NCBI RefSeq assembly: GCF_001571385.1
Contig: NZ_BCNW01000001.1
Span: 1,736,001 to 1,800,000 of the forward strand
Reading direction: 5' to 3'
DNA from: Methanofollis ethanolicus
GTDB taxonomy: Archaea > Halobacteriota > Methanomicrobia > Methanomicrobiales > Methanofollaceae
Length of the DNA: 64,000 bases
In this document: positions 17,521-38,334 of the stretch, one piece after another
How the letters are laid out: every line of letters begins with the position of its first letter
Numbering within the stretch: position 1 is the first letter of the stretch
Translations under genes and position numbers: made by a program
Notes under the pieces: model-generated
Seen by the model: the letters and a program-made list of their open reading frames with translations, nothing else
Databases searched by the model: none
What the model was told of the DNA's origin: nothing

Positions 17521-17542
17521 TTCCTTTTGCATGGACTCACCC

Positions 17543-18795: not shown

Positions 18796-18855
18796 GGTTG
18801 AACGAGACGTCGGCGTGCCAGGTGCCAAACCCACCGTGGGCGTTGACGGCCCTCT
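18782..18855 (-). pseudogene. C-terminal remnant of a Type III-type restriction subunit
   Basis: On the minus strand these bases encode RAVNAHGGFGTWHADVSFNP. This matches the characteristic ending of many BPTD_3080/Type III Res-type endonucleases (AVN-x2-G-x-G-x-W). No upstream part is present. It abuts the truncated MKNV gene, showing that two unrelated gene ends were joined. Confidence 0.5.
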
Positions 18856-18874
18856 CATGTCATGGCCTCCCTAT

Positions 18875-18911
18875 GCTTCAATCCCTATCGGGTTTTCTCA
18901 TCAGCTGCGAC
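18875..18911 (-). repeat. single CRISPR-like repeat unit
   Basis: On the minus strand these 37 bases start GTCGCAGCTGATGAGAAAAC and finish CGATAGGGATTGAAGC. The ending ATTGAAGC is close to the ATTGAAAC/G handle common to archaeal type I/III CRISPR repeats, and length and internal composition fit as well. No second copy and no cas gene are in the window, so this is an orphan unit rather than an array. Confidence 0.5.
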
Positions 18912-19215: not shown

Positions 19216-19321
19216 GAGGGTCGAGGGGGATCAGCCGCTCACCCCCTTCGCCGCGTTCCATTCCCGCACCAGACGGCCGTAACACCCTCGAAACCCTCCG
19301 GGTTTCTCATGCTCCTGCCGG

Positions 19322-20760: not shown

Positions 20761-20800
20761 ATGGGGGAGAGTCGGAGGGGGAGGGGATAAAGGGTGGGGG

Positions 20801-21319: not shown

Positions 21320-21338
21320 TCCCGAAAATAGATGGGGT

Positions 21339-21767
21339 TTATTCTCTCAGATACTTTCCGCCGACAGGAACAAAGCGCGTGGGTTTCTGGATGTCTGTAT
21401 AGCGGCGGACTCCTTCGAGTTCGAGGGCCATCCAGGTCTTCTTTTTTCCCTCTCCCTTTCTGACCCGCACCCCCTGCCAGCGCTCCTGGTTCTCGACGTA
21501 CGCCCTCACCTCTTCTCTGGCGAGGAAGACAGCGTCGCCGAAGGTCTCGAAGAAGGTGAGGAGGTCGTCCGCGAGGAGGACCTGTTTGATCCTCGCCTCG
21601 CCGACATAGCCGGTGTCCTCGTGGGACTGGTAGAAGACGAACTTCATGCCGGCTTTGAGTTCCTTGAAGACCGTGGCCGGTTTGACAAAGACGGTCCTAC
21701 CCTCGTCAAAGAAGCGCGTCATGTAGGGTTTGGGTATGGGGAAGGTGACGCCGGTGATCGTGGTCAT
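21339..21767 (-). CDS. DUF365 family protein (PUA/ASCH-like fold)
   Basis: A 142-residue archaeal protein of the DUF365 family. The conserved start runs GVTFPIPKPYMTRFFDEGRT, then FVKPATVFKELKAGMKFVFY and the loop QSHEDTGYVGEARI. The fold is related to PUA/ASCH domains, which bind RNA or modified nucleotides. A specific function has not been shown, as far as I know. The gene is 88 bases from the DUF5655 gene upstream and 19 bases from the TBP-like gene downstream, all on the minus strand. Next to an EVE-domain gene, a second PUA-like fold in the same cluster is suggestive of recognition of modified nucleic acid; that is inference. Confidence 0.85.
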   Translation of the reverse strand: MTTITGVTFPIPKPYMTRFFDEGRTVFVKPATVFKELKAGMKFVFYQSHEDTGYVGEARIKQVLLADDLLTFFETFGDAVFLAREEVRAYVENQERWQGVRVRKGEGKKKTWMALELEGVRRYTDIQKPTRFVPVGGKYLRE

Positions 21768-21831
21768 CTCTTCCTTCTTTCCTTCTTACTGTCATAAATG
21801 TCACGTTTACTGAGTCCAGATTGTAGGGGCC

Positions 21832-22743
21832 TTAGTTCTCCTCATAACTCTTTACGATGAGAGTCTTGGCCCGTTCCAGGTCGGCATCTGATCGGATGGA
21901 AATCTCCAGATCGCCGGGGGCCCAGTGGCCGATGTTCCGTACATCCCGCGTAAAACCTTCCTCCAGAGGGATGTCGTCGGGGTTGAGACGGAGGTAGAGG
22001 AGCATCAGGTTCGACTGCGGGCGGAGTTCGACACAGGTAAAATTTTTTATCCGCCTGAACGCCGCATACAACTTTGTGACCTTCACCTGGACGTCGTCGC
22101 CCAGAGCGAGGGCAAATGCCTTCAAGGCCTCATAGCGGTCCTTCTGATCAGCATGGGAGAGTTCGAGCGCTTCGCTGAATGTTCTATTCCCTGAGACTTT
22201 TTTCTCGGCTGCGGGGGCGGGGACAGAATCCCCGTTCTGGACCGTGGCATTCACCAGTTCGAGAAGGAGGAGAGATGTGTCGAACTTCCTGTACCTGATC
22301 AACTCCACATTCCTGTTGATCTGCTGGACTGCGTGGATGTCGTACTTCGTGAAGTCGCCGGCAATACAGAGGAGGCGCGGGCCGGTCCAGTCGATGACCT
22401 CGTCGCCCTGCTTCTTGAACGTCTTCAGGTAGAGGAGTTCAAATTCGGCCTTGTGGTCGAGGAGCCAGTCGAGGTAGTAGAGGCCCTGGTTGATGACGTT
22501 CTCGTTGAGCGCCCGTTTGTACTCGATGATGACCGGAAAGCCGTTCTCGTCGATGCCCAGGGTGTCGATCCGGCCGCCGTGTGTCTTTCCGGTGGCGTAC
22601 TCGCTGGCCAGGAAGGTGACGCCAAGGAGAGGGTCGAGGTTCTGCTCCATGTAGGTCTGGAGGGACTTCTCCAGGGCGACGGACGATCCTTTCAACTCCT
22701 CTGCCTGTGGGGTGTCGATGCGAAAGATGCGGGTGTCGCCCAT
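21832..22743 (-). CDS. NucS-like nuclease with C-terminal DUF5655
   Basis: A 303-residue protein. The N-terminal half has a PD-(D/E)XK-type site: GGRIDTLGID (D60) followed by FPVIIEYKR (E74 and K76), as in EndoMS/NucS-like and other restriction-type nucleases. A following helix (NQGLYYLDWLLDHKAEF) is typical of this group. The C-terminal about 110 residues match the DUF5655 domain, with VTKLYAAFRRIKNFTCVELR and a terminal helical part. Such proteins are common in defence islands and may nick or cut DNA. The gene is 4 bases from the EVE gene upstream, so both are made together. Target preference is unknown. Confidence 0.82.
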   Translation of the reverse strand: MGDTRIFRIDTPQAEELKGSSVALEKSLQTYMEQNLDPLLGVTFLASEYATGKTHGGRIDTLGIDENGFPVIIEYKRALNENVINQGLYYLDWLLDHKAEFELLYLKTFKKQGDEVIDWTGPRLLCIAGDFTKYDIHAVQQINRNVELIRYRKFDTSLLLLELVNATVQNGDSVPAPAAEKKVSGNRTFSEALELSHADQKDRYEALKAFALALGDDVQVKVTKLYAAFRRIKNFTCVELRPQSNLMLLYLRLNPDDIPLEEGFTRDVRNIGHWAPGDLEISIRSDADLERAKTLIVKSYEEN

Positions 22744-22747
22744 TGGA

Positions 22748-23206
22748 TCAGTCCCGCGGCGTCTGTGCCGCCTTCATGATGAGTGCAAAGTCCTCCTCCG
22801 GGATCGCCCGCATCGCCTGCCCCCTGATATGCCCTGACCACATCTTTTTGTTCGTGATGAACGTCAGGTCAGGGATCAGGGGCTTGAACTCCACCGGCGG
22901 GTCGAAGACCTGGACAGTCTTCAGTCTGATCCTGAGGGGGAAGACCTCGTTCCCGAGTTTGGGCGGCGCGGTGAAGATCGGTTTTTCGTCCTCATAGACC
23001 GCCGAGGTGATCTCGAAGCACCCGGTGATGGCAGGGGGGAGGGTGGTGTCCTTATCGATCACCTGCTGCCCGACATAGACGAGGAGGGTGTCGCCGGGGT
23101 GGGTCTTGCTGATCGCGTTGATGTACCTCTTCGGGACGCCCCAGATCTGCTTTGTGATCGTGACGTCTGAGTTTGTGCGGTTGGAGATGGCGAGCCAGTG
23201 GGTCAT
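22748..23206 (-). CDS. EVE domain protein
   Basis: A 152-residue protein with the EVE fold, a PUA-like domain. It has the family start HWLAISNRTNSDVTITKQIW and GVPKRYINAISKTHPGDTLL, and a C-terminal aromatic cluster (LTFITNKKMWSGHIRG). EVE domains bind modified bases such as 5-methylcytosine or its derivatives in DNA, and are often fused or linked to restriction enzymes. The gene is directly followed by a PD-(D/E)XK nuclease on the same strand, so a two-part system of modified-base reader plus nuclease is a reasonable reading, although unproven. It diverges from the large helicase/restriction operon across a 120-base A+T-rich promoter region. Confidence 0.87.
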   Translation of the reverse strand: MTHWLAISNRTNSDVTITKQIWGVPKRYINAISKTHPGDTLLVYVGQQVIDKDTTLPPAITGCFEITSAVYEDEKPIFTAPPKLGNEVFPLRIRLKTVQVFDPPVEFKPLIPDLTFITNKKMWSGHIRGQAMRAIPEEDFALIMKAAQTPRD

Positions 23207-23326: not shown

Positions 23327-26125
23327 ATGGGAGTTAGTTTTCGGAATATTTATCGGGAATGCCGTAAATCCAGATATAAGTCTATGCCACAGGATAAACT
23401 GCAATATCGAATATTAAACGAACCATTTAAACTATCTAGCCCACAAATAGAAGCGGTCCTTTCCAAAAAAAATAGGGTACGCGTTGTTGCCGGTGCAGGT
23501 GCAGGAAAAACAGAAACACTCACACGGAAAATAGTGCACCTGCTGATGGAGAAAAAGGCTTCCCCGTCATCCATCGTGGCATTCACATTTACCGAAAAGG
23601 CGGCTCAAAGCATGAAAAGCCGCGTATACGATAGAATCCGATATTTTGGGGGGGATGCAGTCTGCGCCCAGTTAGGTGACATGTACGTAGGGACCATCCA
23701 CGCCTACTGTGCACGGCTGCTTGAAGATTTCTTTGGGTATGGAGGGTACAGTATCCTCGATGAAAATCAGGAGATGGCATATCTCCATCGATTCGGATGG
23801 GATCTCAATATTCTCTCAGATAAGTCCCATTCTCAGAAATGCCAGATTTTTCGGAGAAATCTTAATGTCGTCTATGCCGACATGCTCCCCCGGCATATTC
23901 TTAAAGAACGCGCAGAAGACTTTGCGGTGGCAATCCAGACATATGAACAGAGTCTGGACGACCACCGAAAGCTCACCTTCGACCGGATAATCGACATCAC
24001 AGTAAAGGAACTGGAGAAGCACCCCGAAAAAACCCAGCACATTCGCTATCTCATCGTGGATGAGTATCAGGATATTAATCGTGCACAAGAACGACTAATA
24101 CAGTTGCTCAGCAGAAATGCCCAACTATTCGTGGTCGGCGATCCCCGCCAGACTATTTACCAGTGGCGCGGTTCCGACGACAGATGTTTCGAGAACTTTG
24201 TGAACGAGAAAAATGCCTCGGTTACAGCGGGATTCACGATTGCGGAGAATCGGAGAAGTGCACGTGCCATTGTAGACACAGCAAATGCGTTTGCTCACAC
24301 ATTTGACGGTGTGCAGTATGATCCCATGGTATCTGTCCGCAGGGATGACGGCGGTGCGTACCTGGTGGAAATGCGATCCAATCTGGACGAGGCGAGGTGG
24401 ATTGCCGAGCAGGTCCAGAGGTATGTGGATGAAGGCACATGCAATTACAAGGACATCGGGATTCTACTGCGCAGTGTGAACACATCCGGTCCGGTGTTCA
24501 TTGATGAGTTCCGTCGTCTGAATATCCCCTACATTGTCGGTGGGAAGGTCGGTTTGTTCCGCCGCCCTGAAGCACAGGCGGTAGGGAAGTTGATCGCCTG
24601 GATCAATGGAGATAAGGGATTTTTCCAGAAGAGCCGCTGGGACTTTCATAACCAGATACGCGGGAATGAACTTCTGGTTTCAGGGATCACGGACTGGTGT
24701 GAGATCATCGACGATGAGACTTTATTGAAGAGTCTGCCTGGGAAGTTGGAGAACTGGCGTGGGAACGTGCTTGACGGAGTTTTCACCAACTTCACAGAGA
24801 TGTACTATGACCTTCTCAGTGTTCTCGGGTATGAGCGTCTGGATCCGGACAATGTCAACGATGCCGTTGTCATGGCAAATCTGGGCAGATTCAGCACGCT
24901 GCTTACCGACTACGAAACTGCAATCATGCTGGATGGAAAAAAGCGGAACTGGGAAAAGGATCTGAAGGGATTTTGCTGGTTCTTGAATAGTTTCGCCAAC
25001 TCAGCCTACGAGGAGCAACCCGGCGATGACATCCGGAACGTGAACGCGGTCCAACTCATGACCATACACCAGAGTAAGGGGCTTGAGTGGTCGGTCGTGT
25101 TCGTGCCTGCTGTTGTAGAGAGTCGTTTTCCGTCAAATCTGATGGGCCGTCACGGCACCTGGTTAATGCCCGGGGATCTCTTTGGGCAGGCACGGTATGA
25201 AGGTGATCTGAATAGTGAGCGGAAGTTGATGTACGTGGCATGCACCCGGGCCAAGGATGTCCTGGTGGTCAGCTATTTCACAACAATGAACGGGAATGCC
25301 CGGAGTCCTGGAGTTTTCGTGATTGCAGGTCCATTACGGGATAAACTGCAGCATTTATCGCAGGCTGATCTGTTGCCCCTTCATTCCCTTACACCAAGTC
25401 ATGATTCTGAGGAGGTGGTCACCTACGCCACGGGCGAGTTGATCATCTATGGCCGGTGTCCGTACATGTACCGCATGAACCGGATGTGGGGGTATGAACC
25501 AGGTTTGAAGCCGCGGATTGGATATGGTCGCACGCTTCATCACTGCCTGCGAGAGGCAGCAGACTTGATCCGGGAGGAGAAACTGGATCCCATTACCGGA
25601 GTCGCTGAGGCCGTTAAAACCCATTTTTACCTCCCCTTTGCAGGGCGCGGACAACGAGCGGGTATGAAGGATGCTGCCCGGGAGAAGTTGATCAACTTCG
25701 CTGTCACACATGAGGCTGACATGTACCATATCCGTGAGGTGGAGTCGCGTATTGAATTTCCTCTCCAGAATGCCACTGTCGTCGGAAAAGTGGATGTGAT
25801 CCTCCATGATAGGGAGGGAATCGAAGTGCGCGACTACAAGACCTCAGATCGTGTTGTTTCCCGGGATGAGGCGGCGTTCCAGGTGCGTCTGTACGCGCAG
25901 GGTCTGTCAATGCTGGGGGAGGAGGTAAAAAGGGGGTCGATTGCCTACCTTGATGACGCCTCCGTGGCTGACGTGAGTGTCTGCCCGGAGGATCTGGCAT
26001 CAGTGGTGGCGATGGCTGAGCAGCGTGTGACGGGCATCCAGAACCACGAGTTCCCGGCACAGCCGGGCGAGAACTGCAAGAACTGTGATTACCACACAAT
26101 TTGTAAATTTTCAAATATGACATAA
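23327..26125 (+). CDS. UvrD-like helicase with Cas4/AddB-type Fe-S nuclease domain
   Basis: A 932-residue SF1A helicase-nuclease. Helicase motifs are in order: Walker A VAGAGAGKTETLTRK (from residue 54), motif II LIVDEYQDIN (242-251), VGDPRQTIYQWRGSD, HQSKGLEW and MYVACTRAKD. The C-terminal domain has GKVDVILHDREG followed by VRDYKTSD, an AddAB/Cas4-like nuclease site. The four expected iron-sulfur ligands are visible: one Cys in GRCPYMYRM and three in the closing CKNCDYHTIC. Such enzymes unwind and degrade DNA ends. The gene lies 10 bases before mod, so the three genes uvrD-mod-res form one operon. It is clearly more A+T-rich than the chromosome. ATG 23384 is an alternative start. Confidence 0.9.
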   Translation: MGVSFRNIYRECRKSRYKSMPQDKLQYRILNEPFKLSSPQIEAVLSKKNRVRVVAGAGAGKTETLTRKIVHLLMEKKASPSSIVAFTFTEKAAQSMKSRVYDRIRYFGGDAVCAQLGDMYVGTIHAYCARLLEDFFGYGGYSILDENQEMAYLHRFGWDLNILSDKSHSQKCQIFRRNLNVVYADMLPRHILKERAEDFAVAIQTYEQSLDDHRKLTFDRIIDITVKELEKHPEKTQHIRYLIVDEYQDINRAQERLIQLLSRNAQLFVVGDPRQTIYQWRGSDDRCFENFVNEKNASVTAGFTIAENRRSARAIVDTANAFAHTFDGVQYDPMVSVRRDDGGAYLVEMRSNLDEARWIAEQVQRYVDEGTCNYKDIGILLRSVNTSGPVFIDEFRRLNIPYIVGGKVGLFRRPEAQAVGKLIAWINGDKGFFQKSRWDFHNQIRGNELLVSGITDWCEIIDDETLLKSLPGKLENWRGNVLDGVFTNFTEMYYDLLSVLGYERLDPDNVNDAVVMANLGRFSTLLTDYETAIMLDGKKRNWEKDLKGFCWFLNSFANSAYEEQPGDDIRNVNAVQLMTIHQSKGLEWSVVFVPAVVESRFPSNLMGRHGTWLMPGDLFGQARYEGDLNSERKLMYVACTRAKDVLVVSYFTTMNGNARSPGVFVIAGPLRDKLQHLSQADLLPLHSLTPSHDSEEVVTYATGELIIYGRCPYMYRMNRMWGYEPGLKPRIGYGRTLHHCLREAADLIREEKLDPITGVAEAVKTHFYLPFAGRGQRAGMKDAAREKLINFAVTHEADMYHIREVESRIEFPLQNATVVGKVDVILHDREGIEVRDYKTSDRVVSRDEAAFQVRLYAQGLSMLGEEVKRGSIAYLDDASVADVSVCPEDLASVVAMAEQRVTGIQNHEFPAQPGENCKNCDYHTICKFSNMT

Positions 26126-26135
26126 GTGAGCGAGT

Positions 26136-29100
26136 ATGAGCGACAATTCAGTATCCACATTGCAGAAACTGCTCAGGCAGTTGTTTCAAATTAACGAGGA
26201 GACCGCCGATCTTGACTTTGGCATTTACCGTATCATGCACCTGAAAAAGGGCGCCGTTGATGCATTCATTCAGAACGACATTGCACAAATTGCCGATATG
26301 GCGGCCCTGAAGGAGGCTGTGTCATCGCTGGCCCGCGAACTGGGAGTGGATCCAGAATGTGATGAAGCGGAACTAGAACGTGTTCAGCAGGTAAATCCGG
26401 CAAATGCGGAGTTGTTCCGGACGAAGAGGGATCTTCTGCGGCGGGCTGCCGATATTGGTGAGGCAGGACGCAATGATGTCTTTAATCACCTCATCTCCTT
26501 CCTCTCCCGCTACTATGATGAGGGCGACTTCATGCCGCTGCCCCGGGCGTCGTCATCCCGTACATACGCGGTCCCCTACAACGGTGAGGAAGTAATGCTC
26601 TACTGGGCGAACAAGGACCAATATTACATCAAAACAGGAGAGCACTTCCAGAACTTCCTCTTCCGGGTCGGGGAGTACACGGTGCGGTTCAGACTCCGGG
26701 ATGCGGAAACAGAGCAGAACAACACCCGTGACGAGCGGCGCTACTTCATGCTCCATCCCAAATATCCCTTGGAGTATGACGAAAAAGCAAAGACGCTCAC
26801 GATCTGGTTTGAGTACAGGCAGATCAGCACGGAGGAGAACAAGGCCCTTGGTCAGAATGCCCAGGCAAAACTGGTTGAGCAGGCGTACGATGCCATCCGG
26901 ATGTGGGACGGGATTGCATTCACCGGGCTTCAGGCCTCGCTCTGTCAGTCCCCCGCAAAAGGCCAGAAAAGTCTCCTTGAGAGGAAACTGGCGCAGTATG
27001 TACGCCGGAACACCTCGGATTATTTCATCCACAAGAACCTGGGGCCGTTCCTGCGCCAGGAACTGGATTTCTACATCAAGAACGAGATGATGAACCTGGA
27101 TGCCATCGGCACGGGTGCCAAGCCCAACCTCCAGCCGTACGTGGATCGCATCTGGGTCATGAAGTACCTGGCAAACCAGGTCATCGACTTCCTGGCGCAG
27201 ATGGAGAACTTCCAGAAGAAACTGTGGGAGAAGAAGAAGTTCGTGCTCCAGACTGACTACTGCATGACCATCGACCACATCCCGGAGAAGCACTACCCGG
27301 CAATCTGCGCCAACGAGCGGCAGGTGCAGGAGTGGAAGAACCTCTATGGGATCGGAGAAGGGGCGCAGCAGACGCTCGGCGGCGGCAAAATAGACGTGGC
27401 CTTCCTGAAGGGTCACCCTTACCTGATGCTGGATACCGCCTTCTTCGACGCGACCTTCAAGGACCACCTCCTCGAAGACCTGCAGCACCCGGACGGCACG
27501 CCGGTGACGGACCTCGAAGAGGCCATCGGCGGATTGCTGATCAAGTCGGAGAACTGGCAGGCTTTGAACCTCCTGCAGGAGCGGTATAAGGAGCAGGTGA
27601 AGTGCATCTACATTGATCCGCCATATAATACAGGAAATGACGGGTTTCTGTACAAGGATAATTACCGGCATTCGAGCTGGTTGAGTATGATAAAGGACAG
27701 AATTCTTTGCTCGATGGGTTTTTTATCGGATGATGGTTCTTTCTTCTCTAGTATTGATGATAATGAGGCAGATCTATACGAAGTTCTTTTAAAGGAAATA
27801 TATTCCCCTACAAATTTTTTAGCTACACTTGTTTGGCAAAAAAGATACTCTCCTCCACCAGATACGAGTAATTTTGGTTATATGCATGAGTTAATCTTCG
27901 CATTTCGTTCAAGTGAAAAATTTCAAAGAAATCTGTTACCTCTAACCGAGGAACAAATAGGCAGATACAGAAACCCTGATAATGATCCTAGGGGTCCTTG
28001 GAAGCCCACGGACTACACTTGCCGTTATACCGTGGACGAAAGATCAAACTTAAACTATCCAATAATTAATCCTTATACTCATCAAGAGATTTGGCCCAAT
28101 TACTCGCGTGCTTGGGCGTTTTCACAAGAAGTTCACAAAATAAACGAAAATGAGAATAGAATTTGGTGGGGCTCAGATGGAAGTAATAATGTCCCCTCTC
28201 TTAAGAATTTCTTATCAGAAATTCAGCAGGGTTCAATGCCAACTACAATACTATTTCATGATACCGTTGGCCATACCGATGAAGCTGCGAAAGAATTGAG
28301 GGCATTTTTCCCTAACATTAAGTTTACTGTAAAACCGACGCGGTTAGTTCGCCACCTAATCCAAATCGGAGCTAACAAAGATTCCCTGATTCAAGACTTC
28401 TTTGCCGGCTCAGGCACCACCGCCCACGCCGTGCTCAACATGAACAAGGAGGACGACGGCACCCGAAAGTACATCCTCGTGGAGATGGCTGACTACTTCG
28501 ACACCGTCATGAAACCCCGCATCGAAAAGGTCGCCTACTCCTCCAACTGGAAAGGCGGCAAGCCGCAGGACACCGACGGCCAGAGTCACATGTTCAAGTA
28601 CCTCACACTGGAGAGTTACGAGGACACCCTCAACAACATTGAGTTCTCCGCTCGTGACTCGGTCCAGAAGAGCCTCTTTGATCTGGACGGCTACTTCCTC
28701 CGTTACATGCTCGACGTGGAGAGCCGGGAGAGCCTATGCCGCATGAACCACAGCACACTGGACCGCCCCTTCGACTACACCCTGGCCCGGAAGACCGCCA
28801 GCCAGGATAACATTGCCCGGATGCCCGTGGACCTGGTGGAGACCTTCAACTACCTCCTCGGCATCCACGTCACCACGCTGCGGACCGAGTACAACGGCGA
28901 GATCAAATACCGCGTTGTCACCGGCGAAAAGGCCAGTGAAAACGGCATGGAAACCTACCTCATCATCTGGCGGACCACTGCGGGGTGGGGCGCAGCTGAG
29001 CTGGCATCCGACCGCACATTCGTGACCGAGAAGATTATGGCAGGCCGTGAATTCGACCACATCCACATGAACGACCGTTTCACTGTGGCGAAGGCCAAGA

Positions 29101-29165
29101 AGATTGAGGACTCATTCCACCGGCTCATGGAGGGAGACTGGGATGCCATCCGACCTGCTGCGTGA
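26136..29165 (+). CDS. mod: Type III-like DNA adenine methyltransferase (Mod)
   Basis: A 1009-residue site-specific N6-adenine methyltransferase. Motif order is that of beta-class enzymes: catalytic DPPYNTGNDG at about residue 493, then the AdoMet motif DFFAGSGTTAHAV at about 753. The segment between them is the target recognition domain. It is unusually A+T-rich and differs sharply from both flanks, suggesting a swapped recognition domain. The long N-terminal region (about 450 residues) is typical of large Mod proteins in archaea. The partner Res gene starts inside its last codons (23-base overlap). Methylation would protect host sites from Res; the sequence recognised cannot be read. Confidence 0.92.
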   Translation: MSDNSVSTLQKLLRQLFQINEETADLDFGIYRIMHLKKGAVDAFIQNDIAQIADMAALKEAVSSLARELGVDPECDEAELERVQQVNPANAELFRTKRDLLRRAADIGEAGRNDVFNHLISFLSRYYDEGDFMPLPRASSSRTYAVPYNGEEVMLYWANKDQYYIKTGEHFQNFLFRVGEYTVRFRLRDAETEQNNTRDERRYFMLHPKYPLEYDEKAKTLTIWFEYRQISTEENKALGQNAQAKLVEQAYDAIRMWDGIAFTGLQASLCQSPAKGQKSLLERKLAQYVRRNTSDYFIHKNLGPFLRQELDFYIKNEMMNLDAIGTGAKPNLQPYVDRIWVMKYLANQVIDFLAQMENFQKKLWEKKKFVLQTDYCMTIDHIPEKHYPAICANERQVQEWKNLYGIGEGAQQTLGGGKIDVAFLKGHPYLMLDTAFFDATFKDHLLEDLQHPDGTPVTDLEEAIGGLLIKSENWQALNLLQERYKEQVKCIYIDPPYNTGNDGFLYKDNYRHSSWLSMIKDRILCSMGFLSDDGSFFSSIDDNEADLYEVLLKEIYSPTNFLATLVWQKRYSPPPDTSNFGYMHELIFAFRSSEKFQRNLLPLTEEQIGRYRNPDNDPRGPWKPTDYTCRYTVDERSNLNYPIINPYTHQEIWPNYSRAWAFSQEVHKINENENRIWWGSDGSNNVPSLKNFLSEIQQGSMPTTILFHDTVGHTDEAAKELRAFFPNIKFTVKPTRLVRHLIQIGANKDSLIQDFFAGSGTTAHAVLNMNKEDDGTRKYILVEMADYFDTVMKPRIEKVAYSSNWKGGKPQDTDGQSHMFKYLTLESYEDTLNNIEFSARDSVQKSLFDLDGYFLRYMLDVESRESLCRMNHSTLDRPFDYTLARKTASQDNIARMPVDLVETFNYLLGIHVTTLRTEYNGEIKYRVVTGEKASENGMETYLIIWRTTAGWGAAELASDRTFVTEKIMAGREFDHIHMNDRFTVAKAKKIEDSFHRLMEGDWDAIRPAA

Positions 29166-32100
29166 TAACGTCGTCCTCGGCTCCTTCATGCACCATCTCC
29201 TCGGGGCTGACTCCTTTGAGACCATCCAGGGTCGTCTCCGTGAAGTCAGGGAGGGATTCGACGAAGAGGACCGCAGTTACTACGCCCAGAACATTGCCAC
29301 CTGGGAGGGCGGGGATCCCCGTATCCTTTGCAAACTGCGGGAATACGACGAGCACATCCTCTCGTACGTGCGCCACATCAACACCAAGCGCACCGGCACC
29401 ATGCCCATCACGCTGAAGTACTTCCAGTACCTTGCCATCCTGTACACCGAGATCTACCTCGATCGCTACTTCAATGACCGTAAGAACCAGATCGCAGAAC
29501 TCAATCGGTTTGCACTGAAACACTATGGATCCAAATTCACCTACACCCCCACCGATTTTAGAAAGATCGCCTACTGGATGGCCACCGGCAGCGGCAAGAC
29601 CCTCATCCTCCACATCAACATCCTCCAGTGGCTCCACTACAACCGGGGCCCAGATGCCATCCCGATTGACAAAATCCTCCTCATCACCACCAGTGAATCA
29701 CTCTCGGCCCAGCATCTGGACGAGATGAAGAAGAGCGGCATTCCCGCGGAAATGTATCAAACCGGCTACTTTGCAGGCATGCTGAGCCCAGAGACCGTGC
29801 ACATCATCGACATCAACAAACTCTACGATCAGGAGAAAGAACGCGAAAACACTAGGAATAAACTGGAGCCCAGAAACCCAAAGAACAAGGGATCGAGTGG
29901 TGGGGGCGTTCGGGTGGATGTCAGGACCATCGGGAGCCACAACCTCATCCTCGTCGACGAAGGCCATGTTGGATCAAGTGGGAAAGTTTGGCGGGAACTC
30001 CGCGATAAGGTGAGCGAGAACGGCTTCACCTTCGAGTACAGCGCCACATTCGGGCAGGCCATCAGAAAAAAAGGAGGTAACATCGATAAGGATCTTCTCC
30101 GCACCTACGGCCGTGCCATCATCTTCAACTACTCCTATCCCTATTTCTATGGCGATTACTTTGGGAAGGACTTCCGTCTTCTCAATCTGGAGCGATCCGG
30201 GGACACCCCCTTCACCTCCGAGTTCAAGCACCTTGTTCTCCTCGCCAACCTCCTCACCTTCTACGAGCAGCGCCTCATCTACGACACATACCCCGACGAG
30301 GTGGCAGAGTACAACCTGGACGCACCTCTCTGGATCTTTGTGGGGCGCACCGTCCAGTTAAGTACTGCTCTCAACGAAAACATCCAGAACACCTCCGACA
30401 TCCTTGAAGTACTCCGCTTCCTCCATGCCGTGCTGGCAAATGAGGGCAACCGCATTGTGGAGACCATGGCCGCCATCCTTGACGGCAGGTCCGGACTCGT
30501 CGACCAGAAACTCAACCGGGATCTCTTTGCACGCAACTACCCCGAAACCCGCCTCGCCTATCTGCGGGAGCGCATGGAAAAGGATGACTGTACTGCCGAG
30601 GACATCTACAAGGACATACTCTCCAGACTCTTCCACACCTCCACCACTGGTTCTCTCCAGATCGCCGACATAAAAAAAGCCCGCGGCGAGATAGGCCTCC
30701 GCTGCGCTACCTCATCGGGTAACCCTGCAGTCAGTCCCTACTTCGGTATCATCAATATTGGGGACACGGCAACATTCCTTGACGCAGTCCAGGCCGAAAT
30801 CCCAGAAATCCAGAGGCAGGACGACGAATTCACGCCGTCTCTCTTTACCTCCGTGGCGTACAGGGACTCCCCCACCAATGTCCTCATCGGCGCAAAAAAA
30901 TTCTCAACCGGCTGGAATTCCTATCGCGTCAGCTGCATGGGACTCATCAACGTCGGCCAGAATGCAGGGACCGAAATCGTCCAGACCTTTGGGAGAGGCG
31001 TCCGTCTGCGGGGTAAGAACTTCTCACTCAAGAGAAGTGCTGGCAGCGGCGATGTGGTGCCATCATATATTCCCGCCCTCGAAACGCTCCATGTCTTTGG
31101 CATCGGCGCTGACTACATGGAGATATTCAAGACCGAAATGGGAGAGGATCTCCCACCGGAACCGAAAAAATGGACAATCCCAACCACCCCGTCCCGAAAG
31201 TATCTGGAATACAAACTCCTGATCCCCCGCTTCAGCGAGGCCCAGTTCATTTCCCGGCGGGTAATTACCCCGGACCCCAGTGGACCTCGCTCCACCGTTC
31301 AGGTGGACCTTGACCTCAGGCCCCAGGTCGAGACCTACCAGAGGACCACACAGGGAACCGGGATCGGAGATCAGACCCTGACCCTCCCCATTCATATCAA
31401 ACCAGAATATCTTGACATGCTGAACTGGACCCGGATTTACTTTGAGCTCATGGACTACCGGAATGAACGCGGCTGGTACAACATGGTCTTCGGGGAGGAC
31501 ACGCTCAGGGCCATCATGGATGCAAAGCCATACACACTCATCTGCCCTGCAGCCCAGATCACACCACGGTCCTATGAAGACCTCTGGAAAATCGAGCAGA
31601 TTGTCATCAGCATCCTCAAAAAATATCTCCTGCGGTACTACAACAAGGAAGTCAGTCAGTATGCCAAGGAGACCGTCGATGTCCAGATTCTGGACGCCAA
31701 AAACCGCAACATGACCGTCACCTACACCATTCAGGCCCCATCCACCAACACCGAGTTGATCGCCAACCTTCAACAACTCATCGAAGAGGGCCTGAAGCAG
31801 TTCAACGCCGGGGAAGGAGATGAATTCAACACCGGCCTGAAGAATGTTCATATCGAGCAGCACCTCTACCAGCCCCTCCTTGCCCTAAGCAAGGGCTCGC
31901 CCTTAGTGATTCAACCAACTGGGCTACAAGAGAGCGAGCAGAAATTCATTATGAACCTCCGTACGTATCTGGAGCAGAATCCCCAGATTTTAGATTCCAC
32001 ACACCTGTTTGTGATCCGAAATCGGGTGAAGTCGGGGGTGAAGTTCTTTGAAACGGTGAATTTCTATCCTGATTTCATTATTTGGGCAGTATGTGGTAAA

Positions 32101-32424
32101 ACTCAGCACCTCCTCTTCGTGGATCCGCACGGCCTCGGTAGAATCAACAGTTTCAAAGAAGAAAAAATTGAACTGTCAACAACAATCAAAACGGATTATG
32201 AACCACGGATCCAGGAACGTCTGATGCAGCACAAAGAAATCGAACCCGGAACATCAGTGTATCTTGATTCAGCGATTATTGCCGCACCCGACACACCAAA
32301 GGCGGTGATCAAACAGAATTTTGGTGTATCCAATGATGCTGAATACAACAAAAATCATGTTTTCTTCCCCGAAGATGAAAATTATATCGAGAAATTACTT
32401 GGAATTATTCTGGATACCAACTAA
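29143..32424 (+). CDS. res: Type III-like restriction subunit, DEAD/DEAH helicase (Res)
   Basis: A 1093-residue SF2 helicase subunit. Visible are Walker A MATGSGKTLILH (about residue 145), motif II LVDEGHVGSSG, where DEGH replaces DEAH, and motif VI VQTFGRGVRLRG (about 616). The C-terminal domain has FYPDFIIWAVCGK followed by LLFVDPHGLGR. This occupies the place of the PD-(D/E)XK nuclease but shows D-P-H rather than E-x-K, so the nuclease is atypical or weak. The start is ATG 29143, preceded by GGAGGGAG and overlapping the end of mod; the frame also reads back to 29104. DNA translocation plus cleavage of unmethylated DNA is the expected role. Confidence 0.88.
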   Translation: MPSDLLRDNVVLGSFMHHLLGADSFETIQGRLREVREGFDEEDRSYYAQNIATWEGGDPRILCKLREYDEHILSYVRHINTKRTGTMPITLKYFQYLAILYTEIYLDRYFNDRKNQIAELNRFALKHYGSKFTYTPTDFRKIAYWMATGSGKTLILHINILQWLHYNRGPDAIPIDKILLITTSESLSAQHLDEMKKSGIPAEMYQTGYFAGMLSPETVHIIDINKLYDQEKERENTRNKLEPRNPKNKGSSGGGVRVDVRTIGSHNLILVDEGHVGSSGKVWRELRDKVSENGFTFEYSATFGQAIRKKGGNIDKDLLRTYGRAIIFNYSYPYFYGDYFGKDFRLLNLERSGDTPFTSEFKHLVLLANLLTFYEQRLIYDTYPDEVAEYNLDAPLWIFVGRTVQLSTALNENIQNTSDILEVLRFLHAVLANEGNRIVETMAAILDGRSGLVDQKLNRDLFARNYPETRLAYLRERMEKDDCTAEDIYKDILSRLFHTSTTGSLQIADIKKARGEIGLRCATSSGNPAVSPYFGIINIGDTATFLDAVQAEIPEIQRQDDEFTPSLFTSVAYRDSPTNVLIGAKKFSTGWNSYRVSCMGLINVGQNAGTEIVQTFGRGVRLRGKNFSLKRSAGSGDVVPSYIPALETLHVFGIGADYMEIFKTEMGEDLPPEPKKWTIPTTPSRKYLEYKLLIPRFSEAQFISRRVITPDPSGPRSTVQVDLDLRPQVETYQRTTQGTGIGDQTLTLPIHIKPEYLDMLNWTRIYFELMDYRNERGWYNMVFGEDTLRAIMDAKPYTLICPAAQITPRSYEDLWKIEQIVISILKKYLLRYYNKEVSQYAKETVDVQILDAKNRNMTVTYTIQAPSTNTELIANLQQLIEEGLKQFNAGEGDEFNTGLKNVHIEQHLYQPLLALSKGSPLVIQPTGLQESEQKFIMNLRTYLEQNPQILDSTHLFVIRNRVKSGVKFFETVNFYPDFIIWAVCGKTQHLLFVDPHGLGRINSFKEEKIELSTTIKTDYEPRIQERLMQHKEIEPGTSVYLDSAIIAAPDTPKAVIKQNFGVSNDAEYNKNHVFFPEDENYIEKLLGIILDTN

Positions 32425-32786
32425 AAACATAGACCACCAAATTTTTTCTGTGCGACTATAATGGGAACCCACAAAATTGCCTGAACTGCTCCATTTTGTG
32501 AAAAAAGTTCATTCTGTTTATATTCTCTTCACGCTGAGATCCAATGTCATTGTAAACATCACATTTCAAGTAGCCATGCGGACCATCCCCGAGGAGGACC
32601 ACCAGCGGATCACATCAGTCCACAGGTAACCCAGCACAAAATCAAAAATTTTATTTTCCGAGATGGAATCGTGACATTAATTGCAACTGCCTCTAATGAC
32701 GTGGCATAAATATTTCTTATATTTGCCCCAATTAGAAGAATATATATGTAATGGCATTTAATTCCCCTTTCATCTGGTGAAATGGA
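32425..32786. promoter_or_regulatory. A+T-rich spacer with promoter of the dam-herA-nurA unit
   Basis: These 362 bases hold no gene that I can support. Near the end, GAATATATATG (about 32739-32749) is a strong TATA candidate 38-48 bases before ATG 32787. GGTGA (32777-32781) is a modest ribosome-binding site. The spacer implies that the second three-gene unit is transcribed separately from uvrD-mod-res. Confidence 0.5.
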
Positions 32787-33668
32787 ATGGATGTCGAATG
32801 CGTCCCTCAAACAGTTTCAAATCTACATCAAGAGACCTACAACCCCAATTCTGAGAAGGCCACACCTGTACTGAGATACCCGGGCGGGAAACAACGGCAG
32901 GTATTATATTTTGATCATCTTCTTCCGGATGCTGACTCCATCTCCGGCAGGTATGTGGAACCCTTTGTCGGAGGTGGTGCAATCTTCTTCCACACAAACC
33001 CGCGGGTCGCCGTTCTTTCAGATAAAAACCCAGAACTCATCGACCTCTATATCGGTATCCGTGATCATCCCGAAACCGTATGGGAACTCTATCGTACTTT
33101 CCCCGACACAAAACAGGGATATTATGCAGTCCGAGATCGTTCCGTTGATGAACTGACCTTACCGCAACGGGCGGCAAGGACCCTGTACCTGAACAGGACC
33201 TGCTTCAAGGGGATGTGGCGGCATAACGCGCAGGGCAAGTTCAACGTGGGATATGGAGGTCAGGACCGCCGGTGGGTGATATCAAAAGAGCGGTTATTTG
33301 AAGTCTCCCTCCACCTTTCGCGGTCCACTCTCTGTTGTAGCGACTTCGAACCCATAATCGACTCATGCAGCGCCGGCGATTTTCTGTTCCTCGACCCCCC
33401 CTATCGACCCGGAGAAAGGGACCTGCTCAACGATCACTACACCTTCGGCACGTTTCGATACGACGACCAGATCAGGCTGGCTCAGGCTCTTCACCGCGCA
33501 TCAGAACGCGGCGTGCAATGGCTCATGACCAACTCCTCACACGAGGACATAACCAGACTGTATGAAGACTGTCAGTGCATTTCTCTCCTGAAAGGGACCG
33601 GAAAAATCCCCGGGCACCTTGCAGAACACACGGAAGAAGTGGTCATAATGAACACGGAGACAGATTAA
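32787..33668 (+). CDS. D12-class DNA adenine methyltransferase (Dam-like)
   Basis: A 293-residue alpha-class N6-adenine methyltransferase of the D12 (Dam/DpnM) family. Near the N-terminus is the AdoMet-binding start VLRYPGGKQRQ, then the FxGxG region GRYVEPFVGGGAIFF. A family-typical TLYLNRTCFKGMWR segment follows, then the catalytic motif FLDPPYRPGERD. The stop is directly followed by the herA ATG with no spacing, so the three genes dam-herA-nurA are translated as one unit. In this context it probably methylates host DNA to set it apart from targets of HerA-NurA, or gates the neighbouring system; both are inference. The recognition sequence is not predictable. Confidence 0.9.
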   Translation: MDVECVPQTVSNLHQETYNPNSEKATPVLRYPGGKQRQVLYFDHLLPDADSISGRYVEPFVGGGAIFFHTNPRVAVLSDKNPELIDLYIGIRDHPETVWELYRTFPDTKQGYYAVRDRSVDELTLPQRAARTLYLNRTCFKGMWRHNAQGKFNVGYGGQDRRWVISKERLFEVSLHLSRSTLCCSDFEPIIDSCSAGDFLFLDPPYRPGERDLLNDHYTFGTFRYDDQIRLAQALHRASERGVQWLMTNSSHEDITRLYEDCQCISLLKGTGKIPGHLAEHTEEVVIMNTETD

Positions 33669-35666
33669 ATGGGAATTAACAGCTTATGTGGCGATGCACC
33701 ACTGGACAACAACCCCATCCAGTGCTTTAAGGAATTCATGGAGCAGCAAACGGGATATAAAAAGGCCCGAGAATACAAGAAATGGCGGTTTGTGGGATAT
33801 GTACTCGAACTCGGATATTCCTCTGCCACCATTATCACCTCAGATCCCTACAAAATTGCTGTCGGCGGCATACCCAGAAACTCCCTGCTCATCATGGTCC
33901 CCCGCAACTACACCGAACTCCCCCTCCATTTCACACTCCTTCGTGTCCTTGAGTCGGCCCCCACCCCCCTGAGCAGGGAAGTCCAGCAGACCTACTTTGA
34001 GTTGCAAAAGCGGTCCATGCCTGAACTCGACGTCTTTACCCAGAGCGAACTGCAGTGGGGCGCTCTCAAAACCGAAGTTCTTGGCATGTTCTACCCGAAC
34101 CCGGATAATCTGGAAAAAATTGAGTTCTCATCTGACATCAACAACTTCGTCAGCGCCCACAAATATGAGTTATATGCGCCAACTGACGAGGTTCTGCATG
34201 TTATCATCAACTCCATGGTCCCCTCTGAAAACTGTTTCCCCATTGGAAAACTTAGACTCACCGAGTGCCGCCTCCCCGTCCCCGGAACACCCTCACCAGA
34301 TGTTGAAGCCCATGTATCCACCCTTGACTTCATGGGTACACGGACGGCCATGTTCGGGAAAACCCGTCTTGGCAAGAGTAACACCATTAAAATCATTGCT
34401 CAGAGTCTCATCGAAACAACGCAGGAATCCAAGAGCGTGGGTCAGATCATCTTTGACATCAACGGAGAGTATGCAAACGACAATCCCCAGGATGGAAGTA
34501 CATCCCTGAAGAGTGTGTATACAGAGCGGTGTGAGGTGTACTCATTCAATCCCCGTCCCAATAGTGGTGCAAAGGTACTGAAGATAAACTTCTATGAGCA
34601 CCCGGATCGATCTCACCAGATTCTGGATAATCTCCTGGAGAAAGACGGGCAAAATTCTAACTATATCAAAGGGTTCAGAACCACAGAAATACCCTCCATC
34701 GAATCCCTTGAGGTAATTACAGACAGAGGAGACAAAAAACGGGCACAAAGGCGGATTCTTCTCTACTGGGCAATCCTACATAGTGCAGGATTCAAGGCAG
34801 ATGAAGAGGCGCTTAATCATAAGCTCAAAAAAATTAGTCACACTGCATCAAGCTCCTTTGATCCGCAGTATAATAAAGAATTGCGAGAGGCAGTATACAA
34901 ATCAGATAATCCACCAAAGATTGAGACATTGGATGATCTTGTCACCGAACTCGAAAAAATCCAGGAATATATCAAAGGAACAAAACAGGATGATCCCTTA
35001 CTCAAGTCATCAGGCAGTGGAAAAACCCTCTTCGACAGCGAAGACCGTGCATTACTCAATTTCTTAAAACCAAATGTGGGATCAGGACCGCGCGTCATCT
35101 ACTCATATAAGTTCTATCATGATGCCAATGCCGGGAACATCTTCAAGGATATCATCGAGGAGGTCGACAACGGAAAAACGATCATTCTTGACCTTGGAAA
35201 TGCCGATCCACGCGTCATGACCTATTACTCCGATGAACTCAGCTGGGAGGTCTTCAGGCACCAGACAGAAAAATTCACAACAAACGCATTGGGAGAGCAC
35301 TATGTCCAGCTCTACTTCGAGGAAGCGCACAACCTCTTCCCCCAAAACGATGATGTGACGACAATATACTCCCGTCTTGCCAAAGAAGGAGCGAAATACC
35401 ATATCGGCATGGTCTACTCCACTCAGTCCCCCAGCACAATCAACAAAGACCTCCTTGCACAAACAGAGAATTTCTTCATCGCCCACATGTCCTCCCGCGA
35501 TGAAGTGAAAACACTTGCGAAACTGAATGTTGCCTATGAAAACCTGCAGGAGGATATTCTCCAGACAAAAACACCGGGTTATGTGCGCATGTTAACCCGT
35601 TCACACCGTTTTGTTGTGCCTGTCCAGGTCCGGAAATTCTCTCCGATCTCACGCAAGGGGGCATAA
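33669..35666 (+). CDS. HerA-like hexameric DNA translocase (DUF87)
   Basis: A 665-residue ATPase of the HerA/FtsK superfamily. An N-terminal beta-rich domain precedes Walker A MFGKTRLGKSNTIK at about residue 229. Walker B is YFEEAHNLFPQND at about 547, and the sensor strand VYSTQSPSTINKDLL follows. Between them lies a long helical insertion, more A+T-rich than the rest. HerA hexamers pump duplex DNA and feed it to NurA; the classic pair resects DNA ends in archaeal repair. Here, in a defence island and next to a D12 methylase, the pair more likely acts in immunity. Its start is contiguous with the dam stop and the NurA gene begins 5 bases after its own stop. Confidence 0.9.
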   Translation: MGINSLCGDAPLDNNPIQCFKEFMEQQTGYKKAREYKKWRFVGYVLELGYSSATIITSDPYKIAVGGIPRNSLLIMVPRNYTELPLHFTLLRVLESAPTPLSREVQQTYFELQKRSMPELDVFTQSELQWGALKTEVLGMFYPNPDNLEKIEFSSDINNFVSAHKYELYAPTDEVLHVIINSMVPSENCFPIGKLRLTECRLPVPGTPSPDVEAHVSTLDFMGTRTAMFGKTRLGKSNTIKIIAQSLIETTQESKSVGQIIFDINGEYANDNPQDGSTSLKSVYTERCEVYSFNPRPNSGAKVLKINFYEHPDRSHQILDNLLEKDGQNSNYIKGFRTTEIPSIESLEVITDRGDKKRAQRRILLYWAILHSAGFKADEEALNHKLKKISHTASSSFDPQYNKELREAVYKSDNPPKIETLDDLVTELEKIQEYIKGTKQDDPLLKSSGSGKTLFDSEDRALLNFLKPNVGSGPRVIYSYKFYHDANAGNIFKDIIEEVDNGKTIILDLGNADPRVMTYYSDELSWEVFRHQTEKFTTNALGEHYVQLYFEEAHNLFPQNDDVTTIYSRLAKEGAKYHIGMVYSTQSPSTINKDLLAQTENFFIAHMSSRDEVKTLAKLNVAYENLQEDILQTKTPGYVRMLTRSHRFVVPVQVRKFSPISRKGA

Positions 35667-35671
35667 GCACT

Positions 35672-36997
35672 ATGCCATATCAGGGTGGATCTCGGTTACC
35701 GGGGGAACATTCAAGCAGGACCGCTCATCTGGAGGTACTCCAGAGTCCTCTGGTGAAGATGTTAGTAGAGAGTTTTAAAAAACCGACTGCATCAGAGGAA
35801 TACAGAGATCCGGGTTGGGTCACACTGCCAGAAGGGGGTAAACCCCTCAAGTACATTTTTGGCGTGGACGGTTCGTATCAGACCGTACGCTCGGACACAT
35901 CGCCGTATTCATCAATTGGTTTCGTGAAGACCGCCCTCATGAAGTTGGACACGCACGCTCTTTCAAAACTGGATAAAGAAAACCCCCATCCTCTTATGGT
36001 TCAGGATATTCTCCAGGATTCTGTGGTGTATCATGCAACCGCATTTCCCCTCCAGAATGTCTGGGTTCCCGGCATGAACAATTATCACGCAATTCGGAAG
36101 ATCGTGTACGAATCCATCAAAGACAAGTCGTCCCATATGGAGGGCGAGGTCATGGAGACCTTCAAATGGATAGTATACGAAAAGTGGAGCGGAAAAAAGA
36201 AGGAACTACCCGTTTTTCAATGTCCCCATTGTCATCAAAATGTTGCCACTCTTCCCTATGATAGTGAAAAGGGTTTTTGTGAGAATTGCAAGAATGAAAT
36301 CTATATTACCGACATGCTCGGTTTTCATCTGGACATGGGGGACGACACCGCCCCGGAAGGTATACCTTCCACATATATGACCATTCATGAAACTCTGCTG
36401 TTGTTCACAGCAATACACTACTTTTGGGAACACCAGCGAAACCTCATTTCACAGTGTCTTTTTGTGAAGGATGGGCCTCTTTCTGTTCGTGCCCAGTACT
36501 CCAAACTTGTGGAGCCCATTCGGAGGTTCCTGGCATATGCCCGGGATCAGGGGTATCCTGTGCACATAATTGGGCAGGAAAAGTCAGGAACTTTTTTTGA
36601 CCATCTCAAGTTCATTGAAAGAGATGCTCCTGCAAATTCAATGTTCCTTCCCCAAGACCACTACATAAAAGGACAGATTCAGCATCGCCCTCTCGATGGA
36701 GCGGAATATGGGAAGGACACAAATTATGGTGCCAAGGTGTTCCTAAAAATTGATGACTACACTACCATGGTATTGAATGTGCCCTTTGGCGATTTTACGG
36801 CAAATCCTCACCCTGAAGACCTCATCGGATTGAAAAATATTGTTGCAACAATACCTCAGATCATCAGTTACCGACATGAAGGGGGGTTGATTCCCATAGA
36901 ACTTGCACATGGAGTCGTGTCTCTGTCAACCTACCCCTCAGCTCGCATTCTCAAGTTGTTCACCGATTCGTGTCAGAACGGGACTGGGTCGTCATGA
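35672..36997 (+). CDS. NurA-domain nuclease with zinc-ribbon insert
   Basis: A 441-residue NurA-family nuclease. The first catalytic segment reads IFGVDGSYQTVR (VDGS near residue 65) and the second is CLFVKDGPLSVR (near 264), both matching the NurA metal-binding acids. Between them lies a CPHC...CENC zinc-ribbon insertion (about residues 184-210), not present in minimal NurA proteins. NurA forms a dimer on top of the HerA hexamer and cuts DNA as it is pumped. The gene closes the dam-herA-nurA unit. The zinc insert may serve dimerisation or contact with the methylase. After it the sequence returns toward chromosomal composition. Confidence 0.87.
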   Translation: MPYQGGSRLPGEHSSRTAHLEVLQSPLVKMLVESFKKPTASEEYRDPGWVTLPEGGKPLKYIFGVDGSYQTVRSDTSPYSSIGFVKTALMKLDTHALSKLDKENPHPLMVQDILQDSVVYHATAFPLQNVWVPGMNNYHAIRKIVYESIKDKSSHMEGEVMETFKWIVYEKWSGKKKELPVFQCPHCHQNVATLPYDSEKGFCENCKNEIYITDMLGFHLDMGDDTAPEGIPSTYMTIHETLLLFTAIHYFWEHQRNLISQCLFVKDGPLSVRAQYSKLVEPIRRFLAYARDQGYPVHIIGQEKSGTFFDHLKFIERDAPANSMFLPQDHYIKGQIQHRPLDGAEYGKDTNYGAKVFLKIDDYTTMVLNVPFGDFTANPHPEDLIGLKNIVATIPQIISYRHEGGLIPIELAHGVVSLSTYPSARILKLFTDSCQNGTGSS

Positions 36998-37743: not shown

Positions 37744-38334
37744 ATGACCCCCACAACACCCCTCAAAAACCTTCTCATCGGGGGAAAAATCCTCCGCGGC
37801 GCCCACACAGGGAAACCCACCTCAGAGAGCGACCCCCTGTACCCGGTGGTGGGCATCAGGGCGCTGGCTGAGGACGGCACCGTCGACCACGACAACGTCG
37901 AGCACCTCGCGGTCAGGAACGAGACTGACATCGAGCGTTCCCGCATCCAAGCAGGCGACGTCCTCCTCTCGATGCGGGGGCAGTTCCGCGCAGCCCTTGC
38001 CGACGAAAAGTGCGAGGGCCATATCCTCTCCCAGAACCTCGTCATCCTCAGGTTCAGGGAGGAGGCCGACGCAGCCCTGATGGTCGAGTACTTCAACAGC
38101 CAGCAGGGGAGGGACGCCCTCGCCGCCCTCTCCCGCGGGACGGCGCTGCCCCTCCTCTCCATCATGGCCCTGGAGACGCTGGAGGTCCCGGCCCTCGGCG
38201 GAGCAGACCGGGAAGACCTGGCCGCGTGCCTGGCCGCATACCGGGAGTACGAGGCCCTCGCACACGAGGAGGCGGAGCTGACAGCGCAGATCAGAGACGC
38301 ACTGGTCGCGGAGTACCTGGGGGTGCGGCAGTGA
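37744..38334 (+). CDS. single-TRD Type I specificity-like protein
   Basis: A 196-residue protein resembling half of a Type I HsdS subunit: one target recognition domain followed by a helical spacer. Typical elements include YPVVGIRALAEDG, IQAGDVLLSMRGQFRAAL and EGHILSQNLVILRF, ending with the helical EELTAQIRDALV-like tail. Half-size S subunits act as dimers and recognise symmetric sites. The gene overlaps the next one as GTGA, so the products are made together. No HsdR gene is found in the cluster. It may guide the methyltransferase-like partner to DNA without modifying it. A TATA-like CTACTATAC lies about 30 bases upstream of the start. Confidence 0.8.
   Translation: MTPTTPLKNLLIGGKILRGAHTGKPTSESDPLYPVVGIRALAEDGTVDHDNVEHLAVRNETDIERSRIQAGDVLLSMRGQFRAALADEKCEGHILSQNLVILRFREEADAALMVEYFNSQQGRDALAALSRGTALPLLSIMALETLEVPALGGADREDLAACLAAYREYEALAHEEAELTAQIRDALVAEYLGVRQ

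What the first reader, a model, noticed from the sequence alone, without database searches (positions are those of the whole stretch)
23327..36997. Composite defence block: UvrD-Cas4-like, Mod, Res, D12 methylase, HerA, NurA
Two adjacent codirectional units, uvrD-mod-res and dam-herA-nurA, bring together three DNA motors, at least two nucleases and two adenine methylases. They share an A+T-rich composition unlike the G+C-rich chromosome, so they were probably acquired together. The separate families are known; I do not know a described system with this full set. It may be one large system in which methylation by two enzymes gates HerA-NurA and the UvrD-like resection enzyme, or two neighbouring systems.
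Basis: partly seen in the sequence, partly recalled or inferred. Interest (0 to 1): 0.75.

Follow-up and report, generated by a model that had tools for sequence, protein, structure and literature searches.

The report
Two DNA-defence systems side by side
An archaeon carries two neighbouring gene sets that each look able to tell its own methylated DNA from foreign DNA and cut the foreign kind; both sets also exist alone elsewhere, but they have been found joined in the same order in two unrelated lineages.

Summary
The six genes are really there, intact and codirectional (23,327-36,997), in a low-G+C block. They are two separable three-gene systems.

Unit 1, UvrD/Cas4-Mod-Res, is an already described association of a type III restriction-modification system with a helicase-nuclease.

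Unit 2, D12 methylase-HerA-NurA, is best read as a methylation-gated translocase-nuclease. The closest solved relatives of its HerA and NurA are TdpA and TdpB. Across 17 genomes the HerA-NurA pair stays constant while the methylase next to it changes class (DPPY or TSPPY/F type).

Each unit occurs without the other. In the window's order (232 genomes) UvrD-Mod-Res is in 8 genomes, the trio in 5, both together in 4. One genome carries 93%-identical UvrD and Res, the same EVE gene and the same next gene, but lacks the trio.

Trees of the two units disagree, and a single origin of the composite is rejected in both. Yet the junction is the same: the window keeps a relic of the EVE gene that sits between the units elsewhere. 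So this is recurrent docking of two autonomous modules at one slot in a defence hot spot, not one integrated machine. The "one large system" reading is disfavoured.

The parts
21832..22743 (-). PDC-S18 defence-candidate protein (DUF5655, NucS_C-like); a conserved landmark of the genus beside the block, host-like GC3, not part of the acquired block
   Evidence: PADLOC PDC-S18 5e-137; same S18-EVE-TBP arrangement in G005 and G002 without the block; GC3 0.78
22748..23206 (-). EVE-domain protein (modified-base reader family), paired with S18; host-like GC3
   Evidence: Pfam EVE 1.3e-18
23327..26125 (+). Unit 1: UvrD helicase fused to a Cas4/RecB-like PD-(D/E)XK nuclease, with D...DYK motif and a C-terminal cysteine cluster
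26136..29165 (+). Unit 1: Mod, type III methyltransferase (DPPY, FAGSGTT)
29143..32424 (+). Unit 1: Res, type III helicase-nuclease (ATGSGKT, VDEGH, C-terminal PDF...VDPHG)
32573..32629 (+). 18-codon in-frame relic of an EVE gene C-terminus plus stop (AMRTIPEEDHQRITSVHR*), at the place where an intact EVE gene sits between Res and Dam in G039/G049/G059
   Evidence: E 5.6e-6, 12 of 18 identical to the EVE of G680
32787..33668 (+). Unit 2: D12-class (Dam-family) DNA methyltransferase (EPFVGGG, LDPPY)
33669..35666 (+). Unit 2: HerA-family translocase (GKTRLGKS, FEEAH), closest solved relative TdpA
35672..36997 (+). Unit 2: NurA-family nuclease (VDGS, KDGPL, IGQEKSG) with an inserted zinc-ribbon-like Cys motif, closest solved fold in the TdpAB complex

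Best explanation
Two autonomous, mobile DNA-discriminating defence systems lie head to tail in a defence hot spot. Unit 1 (UvrD/Cas4-Mod-Res) is a type III restriction-modification system with an added helicase-nuclease: Mod marks one strand of a short asymmetric host site, Mod-Res cuts DNA lacking the mark, and UvrD/Cas4 probably resects and degrades the broken ends in the manner of RecB/AddB. Unit 2 (Dam-HerA-NurA) is a translocase-nuclease restriction system: the D12 enzyme methylates host sites, and a HerA hexamer with a NurA dimer runs along or threads foreign dsDNA and digests it, with methylation acting as the stop or exclusion signal. This is the logic of TdpAB with DNA methylation in place of phosphorothioation. 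Shown here: gene content, intact catalytic motifs of most enzymes, fold and profile relatedness to TdpA/TdpB, the constant HerA-NurA pair with exchangeable methylases, independent occurrence of each unit, discordant trees, the shared junction. Inferred: every biochemical step, antiviral activity, gating by methylation, division of labour.
For: Unit 1 alone: G733, G669, G660, G680 (with EVE), G185, Athalassotoga plasmid pATS1; described as the commonest UvrD-Cas4 context (PMC5704561). Unit 2 alone: G743 (closed genome), Larkinella, G482. Order tally: UvrD-Mod-Res in 8 of 232 genomes, trio in 5, both in 4. G680 has UvrD and Res 93% identical to G059 and the same 1,624-aa gene next to EVE, but no trio. 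AU test rejects one clade of composite carriers: unit 1 p 2e-34, unit 2 p 4e-8. Junction relic. HerA profile best hit TdpA 4.6e-27, ahead of Sulfolobus HerA 1e-8. NurA model pLDDT 84.7, best fold TdpAB chain G 3e-9. A DNA methylase gene lies beside the HerA-NurA pair in 15 of 17 genomes, and a type I R-M operon in one more. Hot spot: other genus members carry other R-M-like genes beside the same S18-EVE-TBP genes.
Against: The full set recurs in the same order and orientation at the same junction in two lineages, which is more than loose island clustering predicts and leaves room for cooperation. An ancestral composite with repeated loss of unit 2 is not strictly excluded. No activity of any component has been measured. 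The trio's closest operon with functional data (ICETh1 tdtA in Thermus) was tied to DNA donation, not defence (PMC5365140). The Res nuclease motif ends in DPHG rather than (D/E)XK.
Confidence: 0.72

Rival explanations
1. One integrated six-gene system: both methylases mark self, and Res, UvrD/Cas4 and HerA-NurA act in sequence on the same unmarked DNA, so that neither half is complete alone.
For: Same six genes, adjacent and codirectional, in G039, G049, G059 and the window, 38-60% identical. Same junction with an EVE gene or its relic.
Against: Each unit is kept alone by several lineages. The trio is missing from G680 while unit 1 stays 93% identical for UvrD and Res. Tree topologies differ. 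A 363-base intergenic stretch with A+T-rich, TATA-like sequence precedes dam, as expected for its own promoter.
Confidence: 0.12
2. Unit 2 is a DNA-export or mobile-element module like ICETh1 of Thermus, in which HerA (TdtA), NurA and a methylase serve DNA donation rather than defence.
For: ICETh1 has NurA-TdtA(HerA)-N4/N6 methylase in one operon, and the first two are needed for efficient transjugation (PMC5365140). Pairs also lie on plasmids of Halorarius, Deferribacter and Calothrix.
Against: No tRNA gene in the window, no direct repeats bounding the block, no integrase-type hit among the nearby ORFs scanned. The nearest solved relatives are TdpAB, a restriction machine by general knowledge.
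Confidence: 0.13
3. Ordinary DNA-repair HerA-NurA (end resection) that happens to lie near R-M genes.
For: Same protein families as archaeal HerA-NurA; UvrD/Cas4 resembles RecB/AddB.
Against: The genome has a separate 544-aa chromosomal HerA, only 20% identical (G000:C1:2380483). The block's trio is sporadic (5 of 232 genomes in the order) and tied to methylases.
Confidence: 0.03

Closest known systems
UvrD-Cas4 fusion with type III Mod-Res (Hudaiberdiev et al. 2017, PMC5704561)
   Same: Same three genes and fusion architecture; described as the most common context of UvrD-Cas4
   Different: No HerA mentioned in that paper; the accessory genes reported are WYL/HTH regulators and Schlafen-like ATPases
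TdpABC, phosphorothioation-linked TdpA translocase and TdpB nuclease (PDB 8wet, 8wfd; role from general knowledge)
   Same: HerA-type translocase plus NurA-type nuclease as a restriction engine; best profile and fold hits of the two proteins
   Different: The neighbouring modification gene is a D12 DNA methylase; identity is low (13% over the NurA fold alignment)
ICETh1 tdtA operon of Thermus thermophilus (PMC5365140)
   Same: HerA, NurA and a DNA methylase in one operon on an acquired low-G+C segment
   Different: Includes the type IIG enzyme Tth111II and an integrase between tRNA-derived direct repeats; shown to act in DNA donation
Type III R-M with an extra 5' helicase gene, Eco86II group (PMC8259958)
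   Same: A helicase gene directly 5' of mod-res
   Different: That helicase lacks a nuclease motif and those Mods make m4C; here the 5' gene is UvrD with a PD-(D/E)XK domain
HerA-Sir2 and HerA-DUF4297 defence
   Same: HerA hexamer driving a partner effector
   Different: Partner here is NurA, and a DNA methylase is nearly always adjacent; those pairs have no methylase by general knowledge

Membership tests
UvrD-Cas4 / type III R-M (PMC5704561) | UvrD helicase fused to a Cas4-like PD-(D/E)XK domain | tested here: met
   UvrD 1.5e-49, PDDEXK_1 5e-23, Cas_Cas4 3e-9 in one ORF
UvrD-Cas4 / type III R-M (PMC5704561) | adjacent mod and res genes | tested here: met
   same order in G733, G669, G660, G680, G185, Athalassotoga
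Type III restriction-modification | Res with Walker A, DExH and C-terminal PD-(D/E)XK | tested here: inconclusive
   Walker A and DEGH present; nuclease motif reads PDF...VDPHG, lysine replaced by histidine; both K and H forms occur across the family
Type III restriction-modification | cleavage between two inverted unmethylated sites | not testable with these tools
   needs biochemistry
TdpABC | TdpA-type HerA translocase | tested here: met
   TdpA 8wet is the best PDB profile hit, 4.6e-27
TdpABC | TdpB-type NurA nuclease | tested here: met
   8wfd chain G best fold hit, E 3.3e-9, TM 0.50/0.59
TdpABC | phosphorothioation enzyme as modification component | tested here: not met
   the modification gene beside HerA-NurA is a D12 methylase
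ICETh1-type mobile element | integrase and tRNA-derived flanking direct repeats | tested here: not met
   no tRNA, no bounding repeats, no integrase among scanned ORFs
DISARM / BREX / Dnd-Ssp | DUF1998 helicase with PLD nuclease / PglZ and BrxC / DndCDE or SspBCD | tested here: not met
   none found among the six genes in Pfam, NCBIfam or the best PADLOC rows shown
HerA-Sir2 / HerA-DUF4297 | Sir2 or DUF4297 partner | tested here: not met
   the partner is NurA
MADS | mad1-mad8 gene set | tested here: not met
   only a secondary mad8 match of the HerA, weaker than a generic HerA model; the mad2 match is to a type I-like MTase outside the block

The most novel reading that the evidence does not exclude
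The two units cooperate as one layered system in which breaks made by Mod-Res and resected by UvrD/Cas4 provide DNA ends on which HerA-NurA loads, and two different methylations together define self. Recurrent docking at the same EVE junction would then reflect selection for synergy.
Probability: 0.12. Interest if true: 0.7.

Novelty: new variant of a known kind. Interest (0 to 1): 0.42.

Why it matters
Unit 1 is known. The less familiar part is unit 2: a constant HerA-NurA engine with exchangeable DNA methylases in archaea and bacteria, related to TdpAB. I found no paper in the held library that names it as a restriction-modification class (most subscription journals are not held). If its gating by methylation is real, it would generalise the TdpAB principle to ordinary base methylation and give a defence role to a HerA-NurA branch usually annotated as repair. 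The recurrent docking beside a type III system at one slot also offers a natural test of whether neighbouring defence systems are co-selected.

Tried and rejected
First AlphaFold model of NurA from 6 close sequences was useless (pLDDT 35); replaced by one from 15 diverse sequences. PDB sequence search with the NurA profiles found nothing meaningful. Idea that S18 and EVE beside the block are core components: rejected, since they form a genus landmark with host-like GC3 that occurs without the block. Idea that the K-to-H change in Res marks systems that rely on the trio: rejected, since it also occurs without the trio (G680, G660, Athalassotoga). Desulfoplanes locus L074: only the first 54 NurA residues on a contig end, not usable. 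G201 trio: contig ends inside dam, so its upstream context is unknown; no Mod gene was found in that assembly. An att-like repeat pair around the block was sought and not found. The genus-wide DNA search gave many scattered matches by itself; boundaries came.
Full report
What is there. The block 23,327-36,997 holds six intact, codirectional genes. Pfam, PADLOC and NCBIfam confirm UvrD fused to a PD-(D/E)XK/Cas4-like nuclease, type III Mod and Res, a D12 methylase and HerA. The sixth protein has no family hit of its own. Relatives collected from Bacteroidota and archaea reach Pfam NurA at up to 9e-33, and a 15-sequence AlphaFold model (pLDDT 84.7) finds only NurA-type folds with E below 0.001: TdpAB chain G first (3.3e-9), then HerA-NurA of Thermococcus and Deinococcus and NurA crystal structures. 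The VDGS, KDGPL and G..K.G motifs are conserved across the family. Spacing suggests two transcription units: uvrD-mod-res run together with a 10-base gap and an overlap, then 362 bases of A+T-rich sequence, then dam-herA-nurA with gaps of 0 and 5 bases.

Borders. Unit 1 is 52.0% G+C, unit 2 48.4%, the flanks 62.5%; GC3 is 0.50-0.68 in the six genes but 0.74-0.87 in the neighbouring genes measured. The EVE and S18 genes to the left have host-like GC3 and form, with a TBP gene, a landmark also present in G005 and G002 of the same genus. There, R-M-like genes of other kinds sit beside it. To the right, the stretch from about 37.1 kb is conserved in G006, and from about 37.7 kb in G010. So the foreign block is almost exactly the six genes, in a hot spot where defence genes are exchanged.

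Recurrence. Among 100 relatives, the only close relatives of this HerA are in three genomes of another family of the same order. All three carry the whole set in the order UvrD-Mod-Res-EVE-Dam-HerA-NurA, 38-60% identical to the window; one of them (G039) has a STAND-like ORF inserted after UvrD. In the window the gap between Res and Dam contains an 18-codon in-frame relic of the EVE C-terminus ending at a stop codon. The window lineage therefore once had the same junction.

Separability. Within the order (232 genomes) the trio occurs in 5 genomes and UvrD-Mod-Res in 8; both occur in 4. UvrD-Mod-Res alone is in G733, G669, G660 and G680, and outside the order in G185 and on the Athalassotoga plasmid pATS1. 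G660's contig ends just after Res, but no NurA was found in that genome. The trio alone is in the closed genome G743, in Larkinella knui (no Mod relative in the genome) and in G482. G680 is telling: UvrD and Res are 93% identical to those of G059, and EVE and the next gene (1,624 aa, sacsin-like ATPase with a NO VEIN C-terminal domain) are shared, but the trio between them is absent. The unit-1 tree nests G680 inside the trio carriers (AU p 0.016 against the alternative), which favours loss.

Trees. Concatenated UvrD-Mod-Res puts the window with G733 (no trio); Dam-HerA-NurA puts the window with G201 and the three other composite genomes with G743. One clade of composite carriers is rejected for unit 1 (p 2e-34, G680 included) and unit 2 (p 4e-8). 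The simplest reading is at least two independent joinings at the 3' end of Res-EVE, plus one loss. An ancestral composite with many losses remains possible but costs more events. This is a small sample: 2 composite lineages.

Unit 2 as a system. In 17 genome loci the HerA-NurA pair is constant. A DNA methylase gene is adjacent in 15, and a type I R-M operon in one more (G521); G261 has none recognised. The methylase class changes: DPPY (D12) in the window and its nearest relatives, TSPPY/F in G363, G399, G429, G394, G448 and on the Halorarius and Deferribacter plasmids. Exchange of the modification enzyme around a fixed restriction engine is what a modification-gated nuclease predicts. The HerA profile matches TdpA better than any other solved HerA. 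From general knowledge, TdpAB degrades DNA that lacks phosphorothioation; here a methylase would take the place of the phosphorothioation enzyme. ICETh1 of Thermus has a NurA-HerA-methylase operon tied to DNA donation (PMC5365140), which keeps a transfer role open as a rival.

Unit 1 as a system. Hudaiberdiev et al. 2017 already reported UvrD-Cas4 with Mod and Res as the commonest context of the fusion (PMC5704561). A different 5' helicase accompanies other type III systems in over 500 genomes (PMC8259958); the Desulfoplanes locus L094, with an SNF2-like helicase 5' of Mod, looks similar. Mod carries DPPY, but m4C-forming type III Mods do too, so the base it modifies is not settled. Res reads PDF...VDPHG in place of a canonical (D/E)XK lysine, as do several relatives; whether it still cuts is unknown, and UvrD/Cas4 (D...DYK with a cysteine cluster) may supply nuclease activity.

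Verdict. Observation confirmed; interpretation partly supported. Two autonomous modification-linked systems, one known and one a TdpAB-like variant, docked repeatedly at one slot in a defence hot spot.

Noticed in passing
42156-49886: Complete Wadjet type III system (JetD, JetA, JetB, JetC) downstream of the block, with host-like G+C.
   Followed up: partly
38010-39713: Type I-like N6 methylase (HsdM family) with no adjacent HsdR recognised; its surroundings are conserved in G006 and G010.
   Followed up: partly
20801-23206: TBP-S18-EVE landmark beside which different R-M-like genes sit in G005 and G002: a defence exchange hot spot of the genus.
   Followed up: partly
17258-21319: A Cdc6/Orc1-type ATPase and a TBP gene near short tandem repeats (19081-19124); possible replication-origin surroundings.
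   Followed up: no
L071:11487-16361 and L148:11811-16685: A 1,624-aa sacsin-like ATPase with a NO VEIN C-terminal domain lies directly after the composite, or after Res-EVE where the trio is missing; possibly a further defence gene in the same array.
   Followed up: partly
L057:16213-19158: A 981-aa STAND-like NTPase with repeats is inserted between UvrD/Cas4 and Mod in G039.
   Followed up: no
L122:13402-17200: On the Deferribacter plasmid pDF308 the HerA gene beside methylase and NurA is split by an IS200/IS605 TnpA-TnpB element.
   Followed up: no
L094:650-11460: Desulfoplanes type III locus with an SNF2-like helicase 5' of Mod and a 360-aa RhuM-like gene between Mod and Res.
   Followed up: no
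L106:11201-11935, L107:14360-17488: HNH-like and AAA-HNH genes follow the HerA-NurA pair in some Bacteroidota, suggesting optional accessory effectors.
   Followed up: no
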